From assembly GCA_028015205.1 (NCBI GenBank), contig CM051510.1, forward strand, positions 31,310,580 to 31,374,579: 64,000 bases of DNA, read 5' to 3'. Made by a program: the position numbers and the translations under genes. Shown here one piece after another: positions 10,717 through 63,071 of the stretch. Numbering within the stretch: position 1 is the first letter of the stretch; every line of letters starts with the position of its first letter. The notes beneath the pieces were generated by a model that saw nothing but the letters and a program-made list of their open reading frames with translations, was not told the DNA's origin and did not search any database. This stretch comes from Mytilisepta virgata (taxonomy: Eukaryota > Mollusca > Bivalvia > Mytilida > Mytilidae).

Positions 10717-10930
10717 TCGCCGGGGTGTGGCGATTACCGCATCGGACTACGAAACCGAAGGTCCCAGGTTCGATTCCCGTTCGGGCTGAAAATTTCAGGG
10801 ATCAAATTTGCGACGCCCTATCGACACCATTTGTGAGGATGGTCTCCTTAAAAGATGCTAGTCCGTCGCACCCTCAAGTGAAGAGGGTTATTATAACTTG
10901 TTTCCCAATCCACTATAAATTTATTTTAAC
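10717..10930 (+). mobile_element. tRNA-derived SINE (tRNA-Arg-like head)
   Basis: Positions 10717-10787 form a tRNA-like head: a degenerate A-box (GTGTGGCGATTACCG), an anticodon-loop region GGACTACGAAACC (ACG, as in tRNA-Arg) and a good B-box GGTTCGATTCCC at 10768-10779. A non-tRNA body follows (CAGGGATCAAATTTGCGACG and beyond) and fades out by about 10930. The decayed acceptor stem and attached body mark it as a SINE rather than a tRNA gene. Confidence 0.65.
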
Positions 10931-14284: not shown

Positions 14285-17200
14285 ATGGTTTTAGAAGGCG
14301 TATCGAAATTTTCTATTATTTCCGCAATTATAACATCAGTTGCATTTTTATTCCATCTTATTGGATTTGCAACTGCAAACTGGATTAAAGTAAATGACAA
14401 TAATTACTATGGATTGTGGTATATTTGTGTAAGAATAGTGCAGCGTGGATTTTTCCTTGACAGCTGCGGCCCGTATGAACAGCTATCAGGTATGTTAAGC
14501 TAGAAGAGTTTCCTTCTAGATTCCTTCTGTGACTAGTTTATTGTTTGTATACTTATTGTTTAAGAATCTTCGTCCCAATGTTTATCATGTAAATATTTAT
14601 ACGAACTTATTATAATCACAAATTATGGTGAAGAACTGTAAAAGTTTACAACCAATAAAGAATCTGAATTGTTTATCTATAGTCTTGTTCAGATATCTCG
14701 TAGATTGATTTGAATGAGTTTTCTGTAAACAGTATTTAGCCCATTGAATTTACATTGATTGCTTAATATGGCAGATACCTAGTCTTTCTCAATTGACTGC
14801 GGAAGTAATTCAAAAGATCACACTTTCGACGAGTAGCGCAAGAACTGAATTATTACATGCATAAGTAAAAATTACATATTTTCTATTATTGGTTTTCTAA
14901 TTAAAAGTCTTAGCTTCTTTATTATTTGGGACGACCTTCACTTCAAGTCACTAATCAAGGTCACACTGATTAGAAAATTTTCTTCTGCGCAGTTTGTTGT
15001 CGGTTTTTAAAGACATCATCCAAGTCATCACGGTACTTTATTTAAACTCCAATTCAATCTTATATTTACGGATATTTTGCAACTTATTTTTTAAAGTCTA
15101 AATTATAAATAAAATGAAAAATATGTAGTTAGGGAGCAACCATTTGATTTTTATGGGGCCTAGGATAAATATTGAAATAAAAAGGCAGGACCAGGATTTT
15201 GGAAAAAAGGCAGGATCACTTTAGGTGAGAAAAAAATGCAGGACCTGTGTCAATCAGTACTTTTTTTTGGTTTAAGTGAAAATAAAAATTTGGGCCGCAA
15301 TTGCGGTTGAAAAAAAATCCAGGACCAAAATGTGGACGAAAAAAATAGGCATGATCAAACATTTGACCCTAGCCCCCATAACAATCAAATGGTTGCTCCC
15401 TTAATAATTTAACGTAAATGCAGTACTGCTTTTACCATAAACTTGCATTGCAATGAAGCCAAGCGTGACTGGAAGTTGTCATAGGTGACGTACATGTTTG
15501 ATTATTGAATAAAATTACAATTAATAAAGATAGTAGGTGACAACAGGAAAGCTCATTTGGTAAAAATATACGTCGACAGCAAATTAAACCAACAAATCCT
15601 TCCAAAAAACCTGAAACAAAAGTACAAACAAAATGTTCTTAAATTGGTATTTCCATATAAAGCCTTATGTCGTATTGACTCGAGGTCAGCCTATACAGCT
15701 GATCGTGGCCATGGACCAATACGACTGAACGACATTATAAGGCTTTATATACAAGTGAAAGACGCCAATTTTATGACATCTTTATAAACCACTGACTGCA
15801 AATTACAGTAAGTATTTTAGTGTTCTTTGTAGTGTAACAGTAGAGCATGATTTGTCTCCCAAAATTACCTACCGCACCAACCGGGGATCGAACCCGGAAC
15901 CTTTGATTCAGTAGTCCACCGCTCTACCAACTGAGCTAAAGGAGTACTCCACTAGCGCAGCTAATGGAGGGTGGTTATAAACCTGTTACGGTTCTATAAC
16001 TTCTATATTTATCGAGGGAAGCCCGTTACACTTCCCCCACCTCAAGAGTCATCGTCCTACGATGACGATATCCAACTTCAACCCTTTTGCCAACTAGCCC
16101 TTTTTGACAATCGTGGGTTTTTTTAGTTGGGCGCCAATGTAACAGTAGAGCATGATTTGTCTCCCAAAATTACCTACCGCACCAACCGGGGATCGAACCC
16201 GGAACCTTTGGTTCAGTAGTCCACCGCTCTACCAACTGAGCTAAAGGAGTACTCCACTAGCGCAGCTAATGGAGGGTGGTTATAAACCTGTTACGGTTCT
16301 ATAACTTCTATATTTATCGAGGGAAGCCCGTTACAGTAGTAATAACTATGCGGCAAAATTAGCGTTAAGGTTTTTATTTTTTTCAACGGAAACAAAACAT
16401 AGATCTATTTTTCTTTGGAGAACTGGAAAGTTGATAAAGGATTTAAAAAAATCTCCTGCTATATTAGATGGTTTATTTTTACTGTATTTTAAGCCATTGG
16501 TTAGTAAAAGTAAATTACAATATTTGTCGTATACTCAAAATCAAACTCTGCTTTATGGTTAATATATGATTTGAATATAACACTAAAAGGAAGTAAACTT
16601 TTACAACGAGGAACCAGATTGAGTTATCTTTTCCTAACCAATGTAGGAAAGGGAGATAACTAAATTCTCTCCCTTTTGACCTGAGGCTAAAAGGGAGACA
16701 AATTTATCATCTCCCTTACCTACATTGGTTAGGAAAAGATAACTCACTCTGGTTTCTCATTAAATCGAGCACATTCTGACCTGCTATCTACATTATGTAC
16801 CGTCCAATCAAACGTTTTCAGTTCTCGAAACCGGTCACCTTGATGATAATCATACTGTATTGGCTTCCATAGTATGTTTTATACACCAGAGTAGTCAGGA
16901 TATGTAAGGAGGAGAATTGGGTACCCTTAAAACCGGCTTGGCCTCACCAGTGTTCAGTGTCTGTACCAATTCAGACTATCGTGACTCACTGTTGTGTTTA
17001 TGTTTGTGTTTTGTGCTCTTTTATGTTATTTTTTGTCCGGGGTTCTGCCTGTTGGGTAGCGTTGATTGGTTGGATGTCGACCTTTCCTGTGATTTATTTA
17101 GTTACAATAAATAAAAAACGTACGCCCTATAGCAAGATATTGGAAGCCATTGAAGTACATGTAGGTCTTCAACAGTACGCTTTCAATTTATTAATCATGT

Positions 17201-21383: not shown

Positions 21384-21545
21384 ATATTATCTGCATTTTG
21401 ACAGCTAGATATCGTAAAATATCATCCCGTGAGCCAGAATATGAAGTTTGGGACGAGTGAGCATAGCGAACGAGACCCAAGTCTTCATATTCTGTCGAGC
21501 GGGATGATATTTTACGATATCTAGCTGTCAAAATGCAGATAATAT
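21384..21545. mobile_element. Foldback element with about 70-bp arms
   Basis: Left arm ATTATCTGCATTTTGACAGC and onward is repeated inverted at the right, ending GCAGATAAT; within them GATATCGTAAAATATCATCC is perfectly inverted. The centre (GTGAGCATAGCGAACGAG) is unpaired. The stem arms are nearly perfect, so the copy is young. Confidence 0.8.
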
Positions 21546-35416: not shown

Positions 35417-36361
35417 TTAACATTCTCCATCATCATCTTCTTTAGAAAATTCCTCACTGAGTTCATCTGGAGGTCTCAACTCTACTTGAAAATTATGGGC
35501 TTTACCGTCCCTGGCCAGTTTGTCTTTGTAAAGCTTAAAAGAAGCGCCTAGCGATAGCGCCACTTTTCGCGCACTTGCATTGGAATCGCACAAATAAGCG
35601 TGACATTCCATTTTCTTTGTCCGTGATGATAATTCACTTACAACAATGAATGTGAAAACTTTCCAGAATTTCATGTCTTGAACTCCATAAGAAATAAAAT
35701 CAATAGGAATATTACCAAATGTAACTCCATCTTTTATACGATTCCCCTGGTGTTCTTTAATATCTATTCCTTTATTAGAAACTACGACATAAACTAGAGG
35801 TAATTCGACTGTTTCATTGGCCAACAATGACTTTTTTACTTTTCCGACTAGTTCATCAACAGGTCTCCGGACATAATGGAGTCCATACACACCCTTAACT
35901 GCTTTCTTACCTAAATATTTACATACAAATATTTGCGGTAATCTGTCCACTTTAATTTCCGAAAGTTTTTTTGAATCTGTTGTTTCCGGTTTTTTTGTGG
36001 TTGTAGGAATTGACTGTTTTGGTTTATCAAATTTTGTCAATTTCTTCAACTTTGAAAATATAGAAGACTTCTTTTCTTTCGGAACTTCTCGTACTTTTTC
36101 AGTCGATATTTTATTACTTCTATCATTAAATTCAACACGTTTATTGTTGTTACTTTTCTTGTCTGAAATTTCATCACTTTCAACAGAAACATCCCCGACC
36201 GATTCGATTTCACTTAATTCCTCTCCATTTTCCTCATCTATATTATAATCCGCATCCAATCCTATTTTTTCCAAACGTGCCAGTGCTTCAGTGAAGCTGG
36301 GATCCATTTCCTTGCCTTCCTCTGGCAGTGCTGTGGCTCCTATCACCTGTCCGTCTGACAT
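35417..36361 (-). CDS. PTB/PID-domain adaptor-like protein, intronless
   Basis: A single open frame of 314 aa from the ATG at 36361 (MSDGQVIG); an upstream in-frame extension has no ATG. The N-terminal 140 residues are acidic then Ser/Lys-rich and look disordered. A phosphotyrosine-binding (PID) domain covers about 144-285: it opens IFVCKYLGKKAVKG, with the conserved YLG of PTB strand 1, continues through PLVYVVVSNKGIDI and IDFISYGVQD, and ends in an amphipathic helix (ARKVALSLGASFKLYKDKL). PTB domains of this type bind NPxY-like peptides on receptor tails and act as cytoplasmic adaptors. The tail is very acidic (EEFSKEDDDGEC). A hexamer AATAAA lies on the minus strand at 35390-35395, only about 22 nt past the stop. 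The specific subfamily is not assigned. Confidence 0.9.
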   Translation of the reverse strand: MSDGQVIGATALPEEGKEMDPSFTEALARLEKIGLDADYNIDEENGEELSEIESVGDVSVESDEISDKKSNNNKRVEFNDRSNKISTEKVREVPKEKKSSIFSKLKKLTKFDKPKQSIPTTTKKPETTDSKKLSEIKVDRLPQIFVCKYLGKKAVKGVYGLHYVRRPVDELVGKVKKSLLANETVELPLVYVVVSNKGIDIKEHQGNRIKDGVTFGNIPIDFISYGVQDMKFWKVFTFIVVSELSSRTKKMECHAYLCDSNASARKVALSLGASFKLYKDKLARDGKAHNFQVELRPPDELSEEFSKEDDDGEC

Positions 36362-36861
36362 TTTTAAACGTGAATTAATCAAATAATTTTACACCTGTCC
36401 TTCCGTCAACATCGGATATCTTTATAAGATAAATTTATCACAAAGATAAATAAACGAGAATAAGAAACATTCAGCTGACTTAAGGCGCCTCCCCAAAGAA
36501 CTGGTTCACACAGGTAAAATGTGTCATCATCGATCCACTCAGGTAATAAATAATATATGGTATTTAAAAGGGGGCCTTTAGAAGGTTGTCATAAACATTT
36601 CACACATACGTAACTAGATATATATTTCAATTAGTCATATGAACAAATTCTGGATTAACACCGTTAAAAATATAAACCAGATGCGATCGATAAAATGAAA
36701 AACTTCTTTGTTTTTAATTTTTACCTGTCTCCCGTAAGACTTTTAATTATATAATAAGTTCATAATTATTCAATTATGCATTAAATTGCCACTCTCATGA
36801 TTATAATAAAAAAAATATTAATAGCAATAATACATATAATCAATTCATTGGTGTCCTAATC

Positions 36862-36932: not shown

Positions 36933-39700
36933 CAAGAGGCTCACCAGAGCCTGTATCGCTCACCTGGAGTCTGGTTTTCATTGGACAATTAATCAACTAT
37001 TTGACCAAGTTTGTTGCAATTGGTTCAATTGTCCAGGGAAAATTTGTTGAAGATTTATTTTTCATAAGGTTTAATGTTAAAATATGTTCCCTGATGGTGG
37101 TAGTCCTGGCAGGAAGTTGATAAAATTGACCATGAATAAGGGTGAACCTTAAATAAATGTAACAGAACCCGACCTCAAATTACACAAACCAATAACTCCT
37201 AAATAGAATTTGGGAATCCCTTCAAAATTTCAGGGTATGTAGATCTCAACATGGCAAACATTTTTCAATTTACATTTCACTTCTATCTCAAATAGTTTTG
37301 GAGATAAATGACGAAAAATGTTAAATTTTGAAAATTTGACGAAAAAAGGGCAATAACTCCTATTTGGTTTTAGGGATTTCCTTCAAAATTTAAGGTTAGG
37401 TAGATCTTATCATGCTGATCAATTTTACCCCATCAGATTTTTGATATCTGTAACGGTTTTTATGTTATAAGCCAAAAACAACACATGCACCCCTATATTC
37501 TATTTTTAGCTACCACAGCCACGTTTTATGTCAGATCAAAATAAATTGATTATCGTTTGTAGACGACATGTCATAGATCATTCCTATTAAGTTTCAAACC
37601 AATCGGCCCAGCAGTTTCAGAGGAGAAGATTTTTGAATGAAAAATTTTTGAAACTTTGACAAAAAAAGGGCAACAACTCCTAAATGGGTTTTGGGATTTC
37701 CTTTAAAATTTCAGGGTAGGTAGATCTCAACATGGGAAACATTTTTCAAATACATTTTACTTATATCTCAAATAGTTTTGGAGATAAATGACGAAAAATG
37801 TTAAAATTTTGAAAATTTGACGAAAAAAGGGCAATAACTCCTAAACGGGTTTTGGAATTTCCTTCAAAATTTCAGGGTAGGTAGATCTCGTCAAGCTGAT
37901 CAATTTTACTTCAGTCAGATTTTCGATATCTGTAACGGTTTTTGAGTTATTAGCAAAAAACAGCAATTTACCCCTATGTTCTATTTTTAGCAACAGTGGC
38001 CATGTTTTTCATCGGATCAATTTAAAATGAGGATCGTTTGTGGAGGACATGTCATAGATCATTCCTATTAAAATTCAAACCAATCGGCCCAGCGATTTCA
38101 GAGGAGAAGATTTTTGAATGTTAAAATTTTGAAAATTTGACGAAAAAAGGGCAATAACTCCTAAATGGGTTTTGGAATTTCCTTCAAAATTTCAGGGTAG
38201 GTAGATCTCGTCATGCTGATCAATTTTACCCCATGTCAGATTTTCGATATCTGTAACGGTTTTTAAGTTATAAGCCAAAAACAACACATCCACCCCTATA
38301 TTTTATTTTTAGCTACGACAGCCATGTTTTACGTCAGATCAAAATAAATTGAGGATCGTTTGTAGAGGACATGTCATAGATCATTCCTATTAAGTTTCAA
38401 ACCAATCGGCCCAGTGGTTTCAGAGGAGAAGATTTTTGAATGTTAAAATTTTGAAAATTTGACGAAAAAAGGGCAATAACTCCTAAATGGGTTTTGGAAT
38501 TTCCTTCAAAATTTCAGGGTAGGTAGATCTCGTCATGCTGAACAATTTTACTCCGTCAGATTTTCGATATCTGTAACGGTTTTTGAGTTATTAGCAAAAA
38601 ACAGCAATTTACCCCTATGCTCTATTTTTAGCAACAGTGGCCATGTTTTTCATCGGATCAATTTAAAATGAGGATCGTTTGTGGAGGACATGTCATCAAT
38701 TATTCCTATTAAGTTTCAAACCAATCGGCCCAGCGGTTTCAGAGGAGAAGATTTTTGAATGAAAAGTTTACGACGGACGGACGGACGACGGACGAAAAGT
38801 GATGGCAAAAGCTCACATGGCGTTTGGCCAGGTGAGCTATAAAGGGCAACAACTCCTAAATGGGTTTTGGGATTTCCTTTAAAATTTCAGGGTAGGTAGA
38901 TCTCAACATGGCAAACATTTTTCAAACTTACATTTCACTTCTATCTCAAATAGTTTTGGAGATAAATGACGAAAAATGTTAAAATTTTGAAAATTTGACG
39001 AAAAAAGGGCAATAACTCCTAAACGGGTTGTGGAATTTCCTTCAAAATTTCAGGGTAGGTAGATCTCGTCATGCTGATCAATTTTACCGCGTGTCAGATT
39101 TTCGATATCTGTAACGGTTTTTAAGTTATAAGCCAAAAACAACACATCCACCCCTATATTTTATTTTTAGCTACGACAGCCATGTTCTACTTCAGATCAA
39201 AATAAATTGAGGACCGTTTGTAGAGGACATGTCATAGATCATTCCTATTAAGTTTCAAACCAATCGGCCCAGCGGTTTCAGAGGAGAAGATTTTTGAATG
39301 TTAAAATTTTGAAAATTTGACGAAAAAAGGGCAATAACTCCTAAATGGGTTTGGAATTTCCTTCAAAATTTCAGGGTAGGTAGATCTCGTCATGCTGATC
39401 AATTTTACCCCAGTCAGATTTTCGATATCTGTAACGGTTTTTGAGTTATTAGCAAAAAACATCAATTTACCCCTATGTTCTATTTTTAGCAACAGTGGCC
39501 ATGTTTTTCATCGGATCAATATAAAATGAGGATCGTTTGTGGAGGACATGTCATAGATCATTCCTATTAAGTTTCAAACCAATCGACCCAGCGGTTTCAG
39601 AGGAGAAGATTTTTGAATGAAAAGTTTACGACGGACGGACGGACGGACGACGGACGAAAAGTGATGGCAAAAGCTCACATGGCCTTTGGCCAGGTGAGCT
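36933..39700 (+). mobile_element. AGGCTC-end element with 160/320-bp tandem core
   Basis: It starts CAAGAGGCTC with a GGCTC-ACCA-GAGCC hairpin and TGTATCGCTCACCTGG, and ends with hairpin TGGCCTTTGGCCA then GGTGAGCT, followed by an A-run. Core units marked by GGGCAATAACTCCTAAAT begin near 37350, 37671, 37831, 38151, 38471, 38848, 39009 and 39331; spacing is about 160 or 320 bp. A GACGGAC microsatellite precedes each end. An internal terminus at 38839 is followed at once by more core units without a new head, so this is a composite of about 1.5 elements. Non-coding. Confidence 0.82.
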
Positions 39701-56906: not shown

Positions 56907-59900
56907 TCAATCAGTCCATAATCTTTTGTACGTAATGATATATTCTGGATAGCACCTGTTTAACTCAAAAATCAGAAATTCCCGAAAGTTCCACTGTCCG
57001 TCAACAACAACGGAATCATACAACCAGCTTCCATCTTGGTTATGGGATTTATCTGCACAGCGGTCATTTTTGCATAATTTACATGGTGGTCGTTGAAACA
57101 CTTCTCTGTTGTTTAGAACAAATATGTCTCCTAGAAGCATGCGCACCATGATCATTTTCTTCTCCAAATGCTGATCTCTTTCATTTTGGAAATCTGGGAA
57201 TATAAAAGTATTTTGTTTTTAAAATAAAAAGATCAAATTAACCGTATGTGCGTTTCCTCGTTCTGGAATCCCGTTACTACAATGGTTAAGGTAGTTTTTC
57301 ATAAAGATTTTTTATAATTAAATTAATAAAATAACTAAAGCAAAAAATATATAACCGAAAAAGAATAGCTAAGCAATATGAAAGTAGACAAAGTGCAAAC
57401 GAACAAAATCTAAAGACTGACTAAATTCACCGGAACTATAATGCAAACATATAATACTTAAAAAAAACAAACGAGTGAAAAAAAACCAAATCAGAACAAG
57501 ACAGTAAAACAGCAACAATGAGCAATTTGAACTTTGACAAGAAGTCACGAGTGACATCAGGTGCTCCTCAAAGATACGCATGCCAAATTAAATGTTAAGG
57601 TTATGTTTGGCCTACATGCATATATGTATTTTGTATCTATATATGTTACCAACACGAAAACTAGAGTCTCCCAGGAGCCTGTCTCGCTCAACTGGATTCA
57701 GTTTACCAATCAGCAGCCATAAAAACACAAAGAAACAAACATCTGTATTATTGGACATAATTCTGAAAGAGGACAATCTAATAACCAGGCATGGCTGCCA
57801 AGTCTGGTTCCAATTGGCTGAGTGCTTTCAGACAAGATTTTTTAAATGAATTTTCCCATAGGATCCTATGTTTAACTAATTTCGGCTGTGGTGGCCATCT
57901 TTTTGACATTCAGGGTCATCTGAAACAATTCTGAAAGAGGACCACCTAAGAGCCACTTCTGCCAAGTTTGGTTCCAATTGCCTCTGAAGTTTCAGACAAA
58001 AAGATTTTCTAATTAACTTTTCCCATAGGGTACTTTATGTTAAACTTTGTTCGGCGGTGGTGGACTTGACTTTCCGGGTCATCAGACACAATTGTGAAAT
58101 TCGACCATTTAAGGACTGTTTCTGGCAAGTCTGGTTCCAACTGGCTCTGTAGTTTTACACAAAAAGATAATATAAATAAATTTTCCCATAGGATCCTATG
58201 TTAAACTATGCTCGGCTCTGGTAGCCATCTTGGATGATAGTCCGGATCATCGGACACAATTCTGAAAAAGGGCCATCTAAGGACCATGTTGCTGAAAAGT
58301 CTTGTTCCAATTAGCTCAGTGCTTTTAGACAAGTAGATGTTTAAATGAATTACCCCGATAGGTTCCTATGTTACACTAAGTTCTGCTGTGCTGGCCATCT
58401 TGGTTGATCGTCCGGGACATCGGACACAATTCCGAAAGACGACAATCTAAGCACCATTGCTGCATAGTTTGGTCCTAATTTTCTCAGTAGTTTTAGACAA
58501 TAAGATTTTTAAATGAATTTTCCATAGGGTCCTATGTTAAATTAAGTTTGACTTTGGCGGCCATCTTGGTTGATCGTCCGGGACATCGGACACAATTCCG
58601 AAAGACGACAATCTAAGCACCATTGCTGCTTAGTTTGGTCCTAATTTTCTCAGTAGTTTTAGACAATAAGATTTTTAAATGAATTTCCCATAGGGTCCTA
58701 TGTTTAACTAAATTCTGCTGTGGCAGCCATTTTTGTTGATCGTCGGGGTCATCGGACACAATTATTAGACGACCAACTAAGGACCATTGCTGCCAGGTCT
58801 TGTTTCTATTGGCTCAGTGGTTTCAGACAAGATTTTTAAATGAATTTTCCATAGGGTCCTATGTTAAATTAAGTTTGACTTTGGCGGCCATCTTGGTTGA
58901 TCGTCCGTGTCCTTGGACACAATTCTGAAAGAGGACCATCTAATGACAATTGCTGCCAAGTCTGGTTCCAATTGGCCAAGTAGTTACATAGAAGATTTTT
59001 GATATTCATACCTCCCTTTTTCTATTTTTATTCACAGCAGCCATGTCGGTTGGAAGTCGGGGATGCCGGACACAATTTTGCAAGGGGACCACCCAAGGAC
59101 CGTTCTACCAAAGTTTGATTCCAATTGGCTGAGCGGTTTCAGAGTAGAAAATGTTTTTATATTTGCGGGCGGACGGACGACAGACGACGGAAGCAAAGTG
59201 ATGGCAAAAGATCACATGGCCTCATAGGCCAGGTGGGCCAAAAATTAAAAACTAGATTGAGGCAGACAGCTATCCCCGCACTCTTCACACGTTGTATCCA
59301 TGCGCATCTTTTTCACAATCATACCTTTGAATACATTCCCACATTTTGGAAATTCAAATTCTCAAACCTTACTGCACATCTGCATACAGTGTACGACAAT
59401 ACTGTATACAAATAAAATGTATAAAATGAAAAATGAAAGAAAAGTTTCAGTCACCAGCTTACAATTCCCAATTTTTGAAATTCGACCCCTAAAGGCCCCA
59501 ATTTGTGAACATCAAAATTATAAAACCTTACTGCACATTTACATACAGTGTGTGACAATACCGTAAAGAAATTAAACACCTAAAATGAAAAATGAAAGAG
59601 AGATTAAGGTAACAAGCTTAAATTCACAATTTTCGAAATTCGACCCCTGTGGGCCCCAATTTTTGAAAATCAAAATTCTAAAACCTTATTGCGCATCTAC
59701 ATACAGTTTTGATAATACTATATAGAAATTTAATTGCATAAAATGAAAATTAAAAAAAAGAGTTTAGGTCACAAGCTTAAATTCCTAATTTTCACAATTC
59801 GACCACTTTGGGCCCCTGTTTTTGAAAATGACACTTCTAAAACCTTATTGATCATCTACATACAGTATGTGACAATATTGTACATAAATTAAATGCATGA

Positions 59901-60763
59901 AGTAAAAATGAACGAAGAGTTAAGTCACGAGAAATTGTGATGGACGGACGGGCAGACGCACAGACGAGCGGACAGACGGATGGGGCGAAAACATTATCCC
60001 CAAACGTCTTCGTGCGGGAGTAATAAATGTCCTTACTTACCAATCTTAATAGTATTTAAGAAACATAATAATATATGCATATATATGTATATCATAATGT
60101 TATATATACCTGCATAGGAATCGCTTTTTGTACTACTCTCCGCTGCGTAGACGGCTGGTCCAAACGCTCCCCTCTTGTTTAGTCTAGCATCGAAACCCTG
60201 GCTGATAATAGCATCAATAAATTGTACTGGTGTTCCGTGAAAAAGATAGTGTTCATTCACTGCATGATATATTTCACCTAATACTTTCATGTCTACGTAT
60301 TTCGTTGTCGCTATTTTTCCTTTCTTTACTTTATCAACATTCTCTAAAGAAGAAAACTGTCGGCGCCTAGCCCCTATTTGACGAAATAATTTTGCACGGT
60401 TTTCCGCATACTTTTCAAATAAACTAGGATTTTCAACACGTTCAATTTTTGTAACTACAATGCTATTGTAAACTAAATTAGCTAATCCTTTTGCGTCTTT
60501 GCCTATGCCAACTAAATCTTTCCTCCATGTACCTAGCACAATATTTTCAACAGCCTTCCATTCCTTTCCTGAAACCGGAATCAGCTGAACTGTTGAATTA
60601 TGGGAAATCCATATGTTGATCCTTTTCGAATTGTCATACTTTGTCCAGTTCCTTGGAGTCTTTATTGGTATTTTAGATAACCATGTATAATGTTCTGGTA
60701 ACGAAGAGCTAGGCCTGGGATCACCGTCTTCATGGATATACACAGTTTCTACCTTATTTGCAC
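56907..60763 (-). CDS. PARP-family ADP-ribosyltransferase, last two exons (5' partial)
   Basis: Exon A 60763-60110 (acceptor CTACATTAG, donor GTATAT) and exon B 57193-56907 (acceptor ATTCCCAG) join in frame. The product should transfer ADP-ribose from NAD+ to proteins or nucleic acids. Visible PARP catalytic features: IERVENPSLFEKY at the domain start, LFHGT (catalytic His), GPAVYAAESS (catalytic Tyr), LLGD, and REFLIFELNRCYPEYI. The Glu in REFLIFE lines up with the PARP1 catalytic Glu, with the same 13-residue spacing to the final Tyr, so the triad reads H-Y-E. Upstream, LPEHYTWLSKIP and a basic region resemble the linker of PARP14- or TIPARP-like proteins, but no WWE or macro domain lies in the recovered part. 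The 2.9-kb intron holds two tandem-array repeats. Earlier exons were not found below 64000. Confidence 0.88.
57461..57600 (+). repeat. Weak R2-like segment
   Basis: AGAACAAGACAGTAAAACAG...GACATCAGGTGCTCCTCAAA resembles R2 (AAGACCAAAACAATGCATGC...GGTGCTCCGGAAGAGTAAGC) at low identity. It lies in the PARP intron. Confidence 0.35.
57661..59239 (+). mobile_element. AGGCTC-end element with about 165-bp tandem core
   Basis: It starts CTAGAGTCTCCCAGGAGCCTG and TCTCGCTCAACTGG, and ends with hairpin TGGCCTCATAGGCCA then GGTGGGCC and an A-run. Nine to ten core units carry CCTATGTTAAACTAAG and GGCCATCTTGGTTGATCGTC; marker positions 57865, 58034, 58195, 58365, 58531, 58697 and 58858 give a 161-170 bp spacing. 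A short GGACGGACGAC run precedes the 3' hairpin. It lies in the PARP intron and is non-coding. Confidence 0.82.
59240..60025 (+). repeat. 159-bp tandem array with GACGGAC tail
   Basis: Four to five units marked by AAACCTTACTGCACATCTAC-like text at 59371, 59530, 59688 and 59847 (spacing 157-159). Units also share TTCGACCCCT and GGGCCCCAATTTTTGAAA. The array ends in GGACGGACGGGCAGACG and a distinct terminus CCAAACGTCTTCGTGCGGGA. It starts immediately after the element at 57661-59239 but has different ends, so it is probably another family. Confidence 0.78.
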
Positions 60764-63071
60764 CTAATGTAGATATTCACTTGCATAAATATTCAGAAAT
60801 ATTTCATATGAAAATTGTAACAATCGAAAAGAAAGATAGGAAAAATGTAGGTTATTCTTTTGCAGGTGGTTTGCAATTTCTACTTTAGTGAGAACGGTTT
60901 CATCCGAAAGTACATGTAGGTTGATACTTTCAATTATAGGTTTTATCAAATATATCTCCACCCTCTTTCTTTTTACAATTTCAAACAAAAAAAGTAAAAA
61001 ATGCATACAAAATTTAAATAAAAAGAGACAAATATAAAAATAGCAAACGTTTAGTTAAGATAATTTAACAAAAGTAAAGGATGCTCGCTGGTCATGTTTT
61101 GGTCTTTTTGTCAGATTTTCGGAATCCCCGGGTTTTATCCATTTCTTAAACATGAAATTTTTTGCCCATGAACCCCTACTTTTTCTTTTATAATTCAATC
61201 ATATATACCTTTAAATGGTATTTGACAAAATTTTATGAAATCTTTTTTATTTTTCATACATCTTTGAAGTTGTCAATGCAAAGACAATGAAAAATCCAGA
61301 GAAAACCCATTTCCTGCATATTTTCAAGGCCTTATAGCTCTAAAATGAGCACATGAACCTATATTTGTTTTCTTGCTTATTTGTTTACTATTCATATTCT
61401 CTCAAACTAAAACGACTATTTCAAATCCTATTTATTTCCTTTTAGACCAGCGATCACCCTTAAGAACGAATTGTGTTACTCCAGCGGTATTTGATTTGAT
61501 CTATTGTCTTGATTTTTAAGTTAAGTCAATTTTAATACTTTATACATTTATTTCCCTTGCATTAATGAAATATGAAGATTTGTTCACCCGAGGAAAGTCA
61601 TGTTTCCCGAGGGTTTGCTCGAGGGAAACATGACTTTTCGAGGGTGAACAAATCTTCATATTTCACTAATGCAATGGAAATTAATGATTTATTCCACTAA
61701 CTCGAGTTAAACCCAGAGCATTTCGAATAACTGGGAAATGATGGTGAAACACGAATCTGAGAGGGAAACATGATGTTTTGTTCAATATCACGTGGGAGAG
61801 TGTCAACCAATAAAATACGTACATAGCTATGAATTAATATATATAGTGGAATAATATAGATTGTTTGATGATCTTTAAGCTTCTGGAAGCAATTATTCAC
61901 CACATATTCTGCTGATTTGATATGATTGGTTGTTATTTTACCCCATGTTGACAGTTATCTCTGCCATTACACTGCGATTGGTGTGATATGAAAACGAACC
62001 TTGCTTGCTTTGTACTAGACAGAAACTTTGAACCAGGTTATTAACGTGATAGCTCACAAGGTAATTGTTTGTAGAAAGACATGTTACCCCGATTGGGACA
62101 CAGTATTTTGACTCAAACAGGAAAGTCTTTGCTGAATCAATACAGGCAAGCTCTTTAGTGCTTTCAAAAAGTTTTATTATAGGTATCAACATCATTTAAT
62201 AAACTTGACTTCTCGAACGTACTACGAACGGTCTTTCCAATCCATTTATATTTTGTAATATCTTGAATATATGCAAACATCTTATTTCTTTTCACAGTAA
62301 GGGCTACTCATATACATTTTTTTGCTCTTTTCTCCCAATAAGTTGAAGACTTACTGGACTCTCCTTGATATTGCCAATTTATATATGTATAAGCCCTTTG
62401 CCATGTTTATGGGAGTAATATGTCTAGGAATAGTGCGACCGTGACCGACCAACAGCTTATCTAGTTGAACAGTTGAGACGTCAACATTTTAACACTGCAA
62501 TGCGTATCCAAGTTCTGTAGTAATCATTTTGTATTCGCTTTCATATTGTGTTGTATACACCAAATGGCCAGTATATTAAGTCGAGGGGGGTTATAAAACC
62601 AGTTTAACCCTAACACTACTATGTGTTTGTACTAAGTCAAGACTACAATGACTCTATATTGCTTCTATGTTAGTGTTTTGTTATCTTTATTTTGTTTTAG
62701 ATTGGATGATGATAATTGATTTGTATGCCATTGTTGATCTTTCCTGTTATCCATCTGGTGTTTATTTTCCAAATTTGAAATCTATAATCTAACCCATAAG
62801 ACGATCGAAGCAACCCCCTGACTAAGAGAATGAACATGCCACCAGGATTTGTCGCCATGTGCCCATTACCGAGAACGGGGATAAAATTTATATCCTATGT
62901 ATGTAATTAGATCAACGCATTCTGAAATACTAATGGGATGCAATTTTAAGTTTTAGTGATGCAATGAATCTTTTTTTTAATAATACCAGTTTATACACAA
63001 GAAAAAATGTATGTTCAAGCAAACGAACATAATTTCGATAGCTATTCATCAACTTAAAGTCACTACCGTAC
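60764..63071. other. Region upstream of the recovered PARP exons
   Basis: No further PARP exon could be identified. A foldback lies at 61548-61687. A weak SINE-body fragment lies at about 62040-62125 (AAGGTAATTGTTTGTAGAAA, similar to 5145-5165). Otherwise AT-rich. Confidence 0.4.
61548..61687. mobile_element. Foldback element, arms nearly perfect
   Basis: Arms of about 65 bp: ATGAAATATGAAGATTTGTT and GTCATGTTTCCCGAG at the left, exact inverses at the right, loop GGTTTG. High arm identity suggests a recent origin or gene-conversion-like repair. Confidence 0.85.

What the first reader, a model, noticed from the sequence alone, without database searches (positions are those of the whole stretch)
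15833..16335. Young TRIM whose LTRs each contain a tRNA-like Pol III unit
Seen directly: 198-bp LTRs with one mismatch, TGTAAC/GTTACA ends, GTAG target duplication, lysine-tRNA-type primer site and polypurine tract, with a tRNA-like unit (paired D-arm and T-arm, A- and B-box) in each LTR, in the same sense as the retroelement. The known parallel is the plant Cassandra TRIM, whose LTRs carry 5S rRNA. A tRNA counterpart in an animal would combine SINE-type internal promotion with LTR-type replication. I do not know of a named bivalve family with this design, so it may be undescribed.
Basis: partly seen in the sequence, partly recalled or inferred. Interest (0 to 1): 0.88.

Follow-up and report, generated by a model that had tools for sequence, protein, structure and literature searches.

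The report
Mussel-type Helenus mini-retrotransposon with tRNA-like LTRs
A short, recently active mobile element in a mussel-like bivalve carries a tRNA-like promoter in both of its end repeats; the design is real but was already published in 2024 under the name Helenus, so this is a good fresh example and not a new kind of element.

Summary
On the minus strand, 16335-15833 is a 503-bp TRIM: 198-bp LTRs with one mismatch, GTAG target duplication, primer site, polypurine tract, and an Rfam tRNA match in each LTR in the element's sense. It is a family, not a local accident: one genome search listed 43 rows at 98% or more. Of 34 single insertions, 28 have an exact 4-bp duplication and 16 have identical LTRs. 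The tRNA-like unit scored in 77 of 78 family LTRs scanned elsewhere. Variants shared between insertions sit in both LTRs of each copy, as LTR-type reverse transcription predicts. The suggestion that the design is undescribed is wrong: Kojima 2024 (PMC10886601) named such elements Helenus and reported 51 bivalve families. The host here is mytilid-like, inside the published range. Additions here: a very young, homogeneous family; a T4 run just behind each tRNA-like unit; tandem arrays; one older copy whose tRNA-like unit is far better kept than its U3. Pol III transcription is inferred, not shown. Verdict: new member of a known kind.

The parts
16336..16339 (.). target-site duplication copy GTAG (plus-strand reading), at the element's 5' side
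15829..15832 (.). target-site duplication copy GTAG (plus-strand reading), at the element's 3' side
16138..16335 (-). 5' LTR (element sense), 198 bp
15833..16030 (-). 3' LTR (element sense), 198 bp; its T at LTR position 125 is absent from the 23 other insertions compared
16031..16137 (-). internal region, 107 bp, no sign of coding
16126..16136 (-). primer-binding site TGGCGCCCAAC, one base after the 5' LTR; lysine-tRNA type by recall
   Evidence: sequence; tRNA identity recalled; Kojima 2024 lists lysine among the primers of bivalve Helenus
16031..16043 (-). polypurine tract GAGGTGGGGGAAG (one T) directly before the 3' LTR
   Evidence: sequence
16178..16250 (-). tRNA-like unit of the 5' LTR
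   Evidence: Rfam RF00005 41.3 bits
15873..15945 (-). tRNA-like unit of the 3' LTR
   Evidence: Rfam RF00005 38 bits
16232..16243 (-). A box TAGCTCAGTTGG, 5' LTR (3' LTR copy at 15927-15938)
   Evidence: position read from the sequences; exact in both LTRs in 28 of 30 loci
16189..16199 (-). B box GGTTCGATCCC, 5' LTR (3' LTR copy at 15884-15894)
   Evidence: position read from the sequences; exact in both LTRs in 29 of 30 loci
16166..16169 (-). T4 run eight bases behind the tRNA-like unit, candidate weak Pol III terminator in the 5' LTR (3' LTR copy at 15861-15864)
16251..16278 (-). U3 arm partly complementary to the 5' half of the tRNA-like unit; with it forms a strong predicted RNA hairpin
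   Evidence: the 3' LTR copy was folded

Best explanation
It is a young copy of a Helenus-type TRIM (Kojima's TRIMp3 group). Shown by sequence: two LTRs, PBS, PPT, 4-bp target duplications, many near-identical copies, and a tRNA-like unit with A and B boxes inside each LTR. Inferred: Pol III starts just before the tRNA-like unit of the 5' LTR, sometimes reads through the T4 run behind it, crosses the internal region and stops at the same T4 in the 3' LTR. That would give an RNA of about 390 nt whose two ends repeat the tRNA-like stretch (R). A lysine-type tRNA primes the first strand, the PPT primes the second, and an autonomous Gypsy-type element supplies reverse transcriptase and integrase.
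For: Anatomy. Copies: 43 rows at 98% or more. 28 of 34 single insertions (the window copy among them) have an exact 4-bp duplication, against 0.006 expected by chance per pair; 16 of 34 LTR pairs are identical, none has more than 2 differences. tRNA-like unit above the gathering score in 40 of 40 family LTRs of 20 loci and 37 of 38 family LTRs of 17 further loci. In 24 insertions, three LTR sites carry variants shared between insertions (17, 21, 102), always in both LTRs of a copy; five more sites carry a variant of one copy in both its LTRs: template copying. A T4 run lies in each LTR and nowhere else in the sense strand in 30 of 30 loci. An older copy (L044) has 1 substitution in 73 tRNA-like columns in each LTR, while its U3 is 81% alike over 81 columns in the 5' LTR. 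Published parallel: Kojima 2024.
Against: No transcript data; Pol III use is not shown here nor, by his own words, in Kojima 2024. A T4 in the 5' LTR should stop part of the transcripts. The scarcity of sense T runs is not significant (77% of shuffles have at most one T4). One older copy only, found because it lies beside a young one; in its 5' LTR the T4 is deleted. The autonomous partner was not found or searched. Six of 34 single insertions lack an exact duplication. One LTR in an array scored no tRNA match (L037).
Confidence: 0.85

Rival explanations
1. A Helenus-type TRIM in structure, but transcribed by Pol II from U3; the tRNA-like unit is a passenger from a SINE or tRNA insertion in an ancestral LTR.
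For: 85 bp of LTR lie upstream of the unit; no transcript data; acceptor and anticodon stems have decayed; the T4 behind the unit would hinder Pol III read-through.
Against: In the one older copy the tRNA-like unit is the best-kept part and U3 the worst-kept. A and B boxes are intact in nearly all young copies, though young copies share most of their sequence anyway.
Confidence: 0.2
2. A local chimera: an ordinary TRIM with a recent SINE insertion in its LTR, confined to this locus.
For: A tRNA-related stretch at 10744-10779 shares 36 nt at 83% with the unit.
Against: The unit is in 77 of 78 family LTRs scanned at other places and in both LTRs of an older copy. Similarity to the SINE-like stretch stops at the tRNA part; the 3' flank is no better than shuffles, 510 of 2000.
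Confidence: 0.01
3. A plain tRNA gene or tRNA pseudogene pair that merely lies in a duplicated segment.
For: Rfam scores the unit above its gathering score.
Against: LTR ends, PBS, PPT and 4-bp target duplications at dispersed places; broken acceptor stem.
Confidence: 0.01

Closest known systems
Helenus (Kojima 2024, PMC10886601), TRIMp3 group
   Same: Short non-coding LTR element, tRNA-derived sequence with A and B boxes in each LTR, PBS and PPT, 4-bp target duplication in animals, lysine among the primer tRNAs of bivalve families, mytilid hosts, tandem arrays in one fish family.
   Different: Nothing that breaks the definition. Whether it equals one of the 51 published bivalve families could not be tested (supplement not readable here). 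A search of the main text for terminator, TTTT, hairpin, readthrough, read-through and termination found only one mention, about Cassandra, so the T4 run and the U3 hairpin seem not to be discussed there.
Cassandra (plant TRIM with 5S rRNA in its LTRs)
   Same: Same logic: Pol III-type internal promoter inside an LTR, transcript from the 5' to the 3' LTR, tandem LTR-internal arrays (passages; introduction).
   Different: tRNA-like unit here, no 5S match; animal host.
biv-TRIM (Satovic 2019, PMC6934838)
   Same: Bivalve TRIM of similar size; tandem forms occur (abstract).
   Different: biv-TRIM has 202-218 bp repeats, a 77-80 bp internal domain, mostly PPT GGGGAGA, no clear PBS and, with one exception, a conserved TGATCCCAAAGGAC; the term polymerase III does not occur in its main text. 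Here 198 and 107 bp, a clear PBS, another PPT and no such segment.
tRNA-derived SINEs
   Same: tRNA-like promoter; the SINE-like stretch at 10744-10779 shares 36 nt at 83%.
   Different: No LTRs, moved by non-LTR retrotransposons; no similarity found beyond the tRNA part.

Membership tests
Helenus | TRIM: two LTRs, short, no protein genes | tested here: met
   503 bp; longest stop-to-stop frame wholly inside is 53 codons
Helenus | tRNA-derived sequence in the LTRs with A and B boxes | tested here: met
Helenus | PBS and PPT at the ends of the internal region | tested here: met
   sequence; the primer tRNA's identity is recalled
Helenus | 4-bp target duplication (animal families) | tested here: met
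   28 of 34 single insertions exact
Helenus | host in the published range (Pteriomorphia, Mytilida) | tested here: met
   best-scoring protein match of 35420-36388, and the best named one, is Mytilus galloprovincialis, 73% over 96%; one protein only, species of the window unnamed
Helenus | transcription by Pol III (expected, not required by the definition) | not testable with these tools
   no RNA data
Helenus | mobilised by a Gypsy-type element (inferred by Kojima for animals) | not tested
   no partner search was run; the genome search tool did not answer again
Helenus | identity with one of the 51 published bivalve families | not testable with these tools
   consensus sequences are in Repbase and the supplement, not readable here
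Cassandra | 5S rRNA sequence in the LTRs | tested here: not met
   at gathering scores Rfam finds tRNA only
biv-TRIM | 202-218 bp repeats, 77-80 bp internal domain, conserved TGATCCCAAAGGAC segment | tested here: not met
   198 and 107 bp, segment absent (sequence)
SINE | no LTRs, small-RNA-like head at the 5' end | tested here: not met

The most novel reading that the evidence does not exclude
The T4 run directly behind the tRNA-like unit acts as a leaky Pol III terminator kept for that purpose. Each LTR then makes a short tRNA-like RNA, and only read-through gives the genomic RNA, whose 3' end is set by the same T4. The strong hairpin between U3 and the tRNA-like half would be complete only in the 3' LTR part of that RNA and would mark the genomic RNA for termination, packaging or strand transfer.
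Probability: 0.2. Interest if true: 0.5.

Novelty: new member of a known kind. Interest (0 to 1): 0.25.

Why it matters
Helenus was described from genome sequences and its Pol III transcription is unproven. A family with dozens of nearly identical insertions in one mytilid-like genome is a practical subject for showing whether an LTR element can replicate from a Pol III transcript. It also warns annotators: each LTR of such a family can score as a tRNA.

Tried and rejected
Rejected: local SINE insertion (copies share the unit); working tRNA gene (acceptor stem broken); descent from the nearby SINE-like stretch together with its body (3' flank like shuffles); selection against T runs (not significant).

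Led nowhere: exact DNA patterns in viral contigs (none) and genome contigs (one archaeal contig; ARAGORN found no tRNA there; taken as chance); a protein search with a chance ORF over U3, PPT and internal region (none). Solo LTRs, total copy number and the autonomous partner were not measured.

Dropped before counts: six array loci (L004, L006, L027, L028, L036, L037: four arrays) and two duplicates by flank (L018 like L021, L030 like L013), leaving 34 of 42 loci. Flanks were compared for L002-L031 only, so further duplicates among L032-L043 are not excluded; that comparison also showed short partial matches between flanks of L015 and L031 and of L006 and L015. In one search, for the variant list, seven of 30 loci were left out (four array loci, L018, L030 and the window copy), leaving 23, the window copy being put back for the pairwise figure; its T-run and box counts use all 30, arrays and duplicates included. 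In one search six of 30 were left out, leaving 24. Not scanned: L002, L004, L018, L028, L030. One search was run with loci in mixed orientation and is discarded; one search replaces it.

Full report
What is there. The element lies on the minus strand, 16335 to 15833. In its own sense it has a 198-bp LTR, a 107-bp internal region and a second 198-bp LTR with one difference, all flanked by GTAG. The internal region has, one base after the LTR, TGGCGCCCAAC, which I recognise by recall as the lysine-tRNA type of primer site, and ends with GAGGTGGGGGAAG directly before the 3' LTR. Nothing suggests coding; the longest stop-to-stop frame lying wholly inside the element is 53 codons.

The tRNA-like unit. 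Rfam finds its tRNA family in both LTRs on the minus strand, above the gathering score. The alignment of the 5' LTR unit shows fully paired D and T stems but four of seven acceptor pairs and two of five anticodon-stem pairs not standard. ARAGORN at default finds none. Folded alone, the unit is no more stable than shuffles and does not give a cloverleaf. So it keeps the promoter boxes rather than a working tRNA, which is how Kojima describes most Helenus.

It is a family, and a young one. One genome search answered. The window lies in an unnamed assembly of 1.03 Gb in 109 contigs. Of 2021 first-look candidates the tool scored 40 and listed 46 rows, 43 of them at 98% or more. These are the best matches, so older copies are under-represented and the number is a lower bound. 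I hold all 43 rows as 42 loci. Six loci belong to four tandem arrays of LTR-internal-LTR-internal-LTR form and two have the flanks of another locus, which leaves 34 single insertions, the window copy among them. Of these, 28 have an exact 4-bp target duplication; chance is 0.006 per pair. Of the six others, three match at 3 of 4 bases (L007, L011, L032), one at 2 (L033), one not at all (L019), and L024 would match if two bases changed at its start are counted as element. LTR pairs are identical in 16 of 34, with one difference in 10 and two in 8. Twenty-four insertions differ pairwise by 1.1% on average, 2.6% at most.

The tRNA-like unit belongs to the family. It scored above the gathering score in 40 of 40 family LTRs of 20 loci and in 37 of 38 family LTRs of 17 further loci. 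The miss is an LTR with gaps in array L037; two others scored low or in part (L039 30.2 bits, L043 model positions 8-63). L044 repeats L019 and its young copy is not counted again. L002 (the window copy), L004 and L028 (arrays covered by L006 and L027), L018 and L030 were not scanned.

Signature of reverse transcription. In 24 insertions, three LTR sites carry variants shared between insertions (positions 17, 21, 102), in both LTRs of each copy concerned. Five more sites (26, 61, 121, 124, 152) carry a variant of a single copy, again in both its LTRs. Sites changed in one LTR only concern one copy each, except position 125, changed in two copies to different letters. This is what LTR-type copying from one RNA predicts, followed by a few mutations after insertion. 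The window's own T at position 125 of its 3' LTR is not found in the 23 other insertions compared.

An older copy. Beside one young copy lies an older relative, L044 1930-2708, flanked by CTAG, its 5' LTR split by another insertion. In its 3' LTR the tRNA-like unit has 1 substitution and no gap in 73 columns; U3 has 5 substitutions and 18 gap columns in 60, most of the gaps from one deletion; the stretch behind the unit has 4 substitutions in 40 and the internal region 6 in 107. In its 5' LTR, LTR positions 7-87 are 81% alike and 85-168 are 99% alike. Rfam scores both of its units, 41.3 and 35.7 bits. This fits constraint on the promoter part, but it is one copy.

How it most likely works. Pol III would start just before the tRNA-like unit. 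Each LTR has one run of four T, eight bases behind the unit; 30 of 30 loci have it in both LTRs and nowhere else in the sense strand. In the 3' LTR it can end the RNA; in the 5' LTR it must be read through. Cassandra has the same logic: its RNA runs from the 5S part of the 5' LTR to that of the 3' LTR (introduction of PMC10886601), and arrays of Cassandra give multi-unit transcripts that read through inner LTRs (passages of PMC7215508). I tested whether T runs are rarer than expected and found no support. The LTR stretch before the unit is partly complementary to the first half of the unit; LTR positions 55-171 as RNA fold at -50.1 kcal/mol against a mean of -33.7 for shuffles, z -4.9, 0 of 200. 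By the start site assumed here this hairpin would be complete only at the 3' end of the RNA. Its role is unknown, and the older copy's 3' LTR has lost part of the U3 arm.

Comparison with what is known. Kojima 2024 (abstract, introduction, methods, results, discussion, legends and tables read) defines Helenus as TRIMs with a tRNA-derived sequence in the LTRs; reports them in fungi, animals and a plant; 51 families in five orders of pteriomorph bivalves, five mytilid species in Table 1; 4-bp duplications in animals; lysine among the bivalve primer tRNAs; Gypsy as likely helper of animal families. The protein at 35420-36388 puts the host nearest, by score, to Mytilus galloprovincialis: 73% identity over 96%, against 57% and 55% for named true oysters (Saccostrea, Ostrea) and 49-60% for named scallops; unnamed sequences at 69-73% also occur, and some gastropods reach 66% over a shorter stretch. 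The defining features that could be tested are met. Five literature searches (20 of 65, 20 of 2695, 20 of 53, 5 of 5 and 10 of 22 papers listed) put Kojima's paper first in four and second in one; I saw no other description of a tRNA-bearing TRIM among the listed titles and abstract starts. Of PMC6934838 I saw the abstract, the first part of the results and passages.

Verdict. The element is a new member, possibly of an already listed family, and a good young system for testing Pol III-driven LTR retrotransposition.

Noticed in passing
window 10720-10800 (+): Degenerate tRNA-derived SINE-like stretch; shares 36 nt at 83% with the Helenus tRNA-like unit (10744-10779), around the anticodon and B box, no significant similarity beyond.
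   Followed up: partly
window 16605-16761: Fold-back element beside the TRIM: 78-nt arms, 86% complementary, 1 nt apart.
   Followed up: no
window 15655-15750: Short MITE-like unit on the other side of the TRIM: 14-nt perfect inverted repeats, 68 nt apart.
   Followed up: no
window 21397-21532: Long inverted repeat, matched on both strands to a miRNA family below the gathering score; probably another MITE.
   Followed up: no
window 37190-39619 and 57753-58985: Tandem arrays with periods of about 320-480 and 166-327 bp.
   Followed up: no
window 60036-60776 (-): ORF with a PARP catalytic domain.
   Followed up: no
L006, L027, L036, L037: Four tandem arrays LTR-internal-LTR-internal-LTR; three of the four are flanked by matching 4-bp sequences, one of these within a TA run.
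   Followed up: partly
L044 1930-2708: Older copy of the same family with a diverged U3 and a conserved tRNA-like unit, 5' LTR split by an unrelated insertion.
   Followed up: yes
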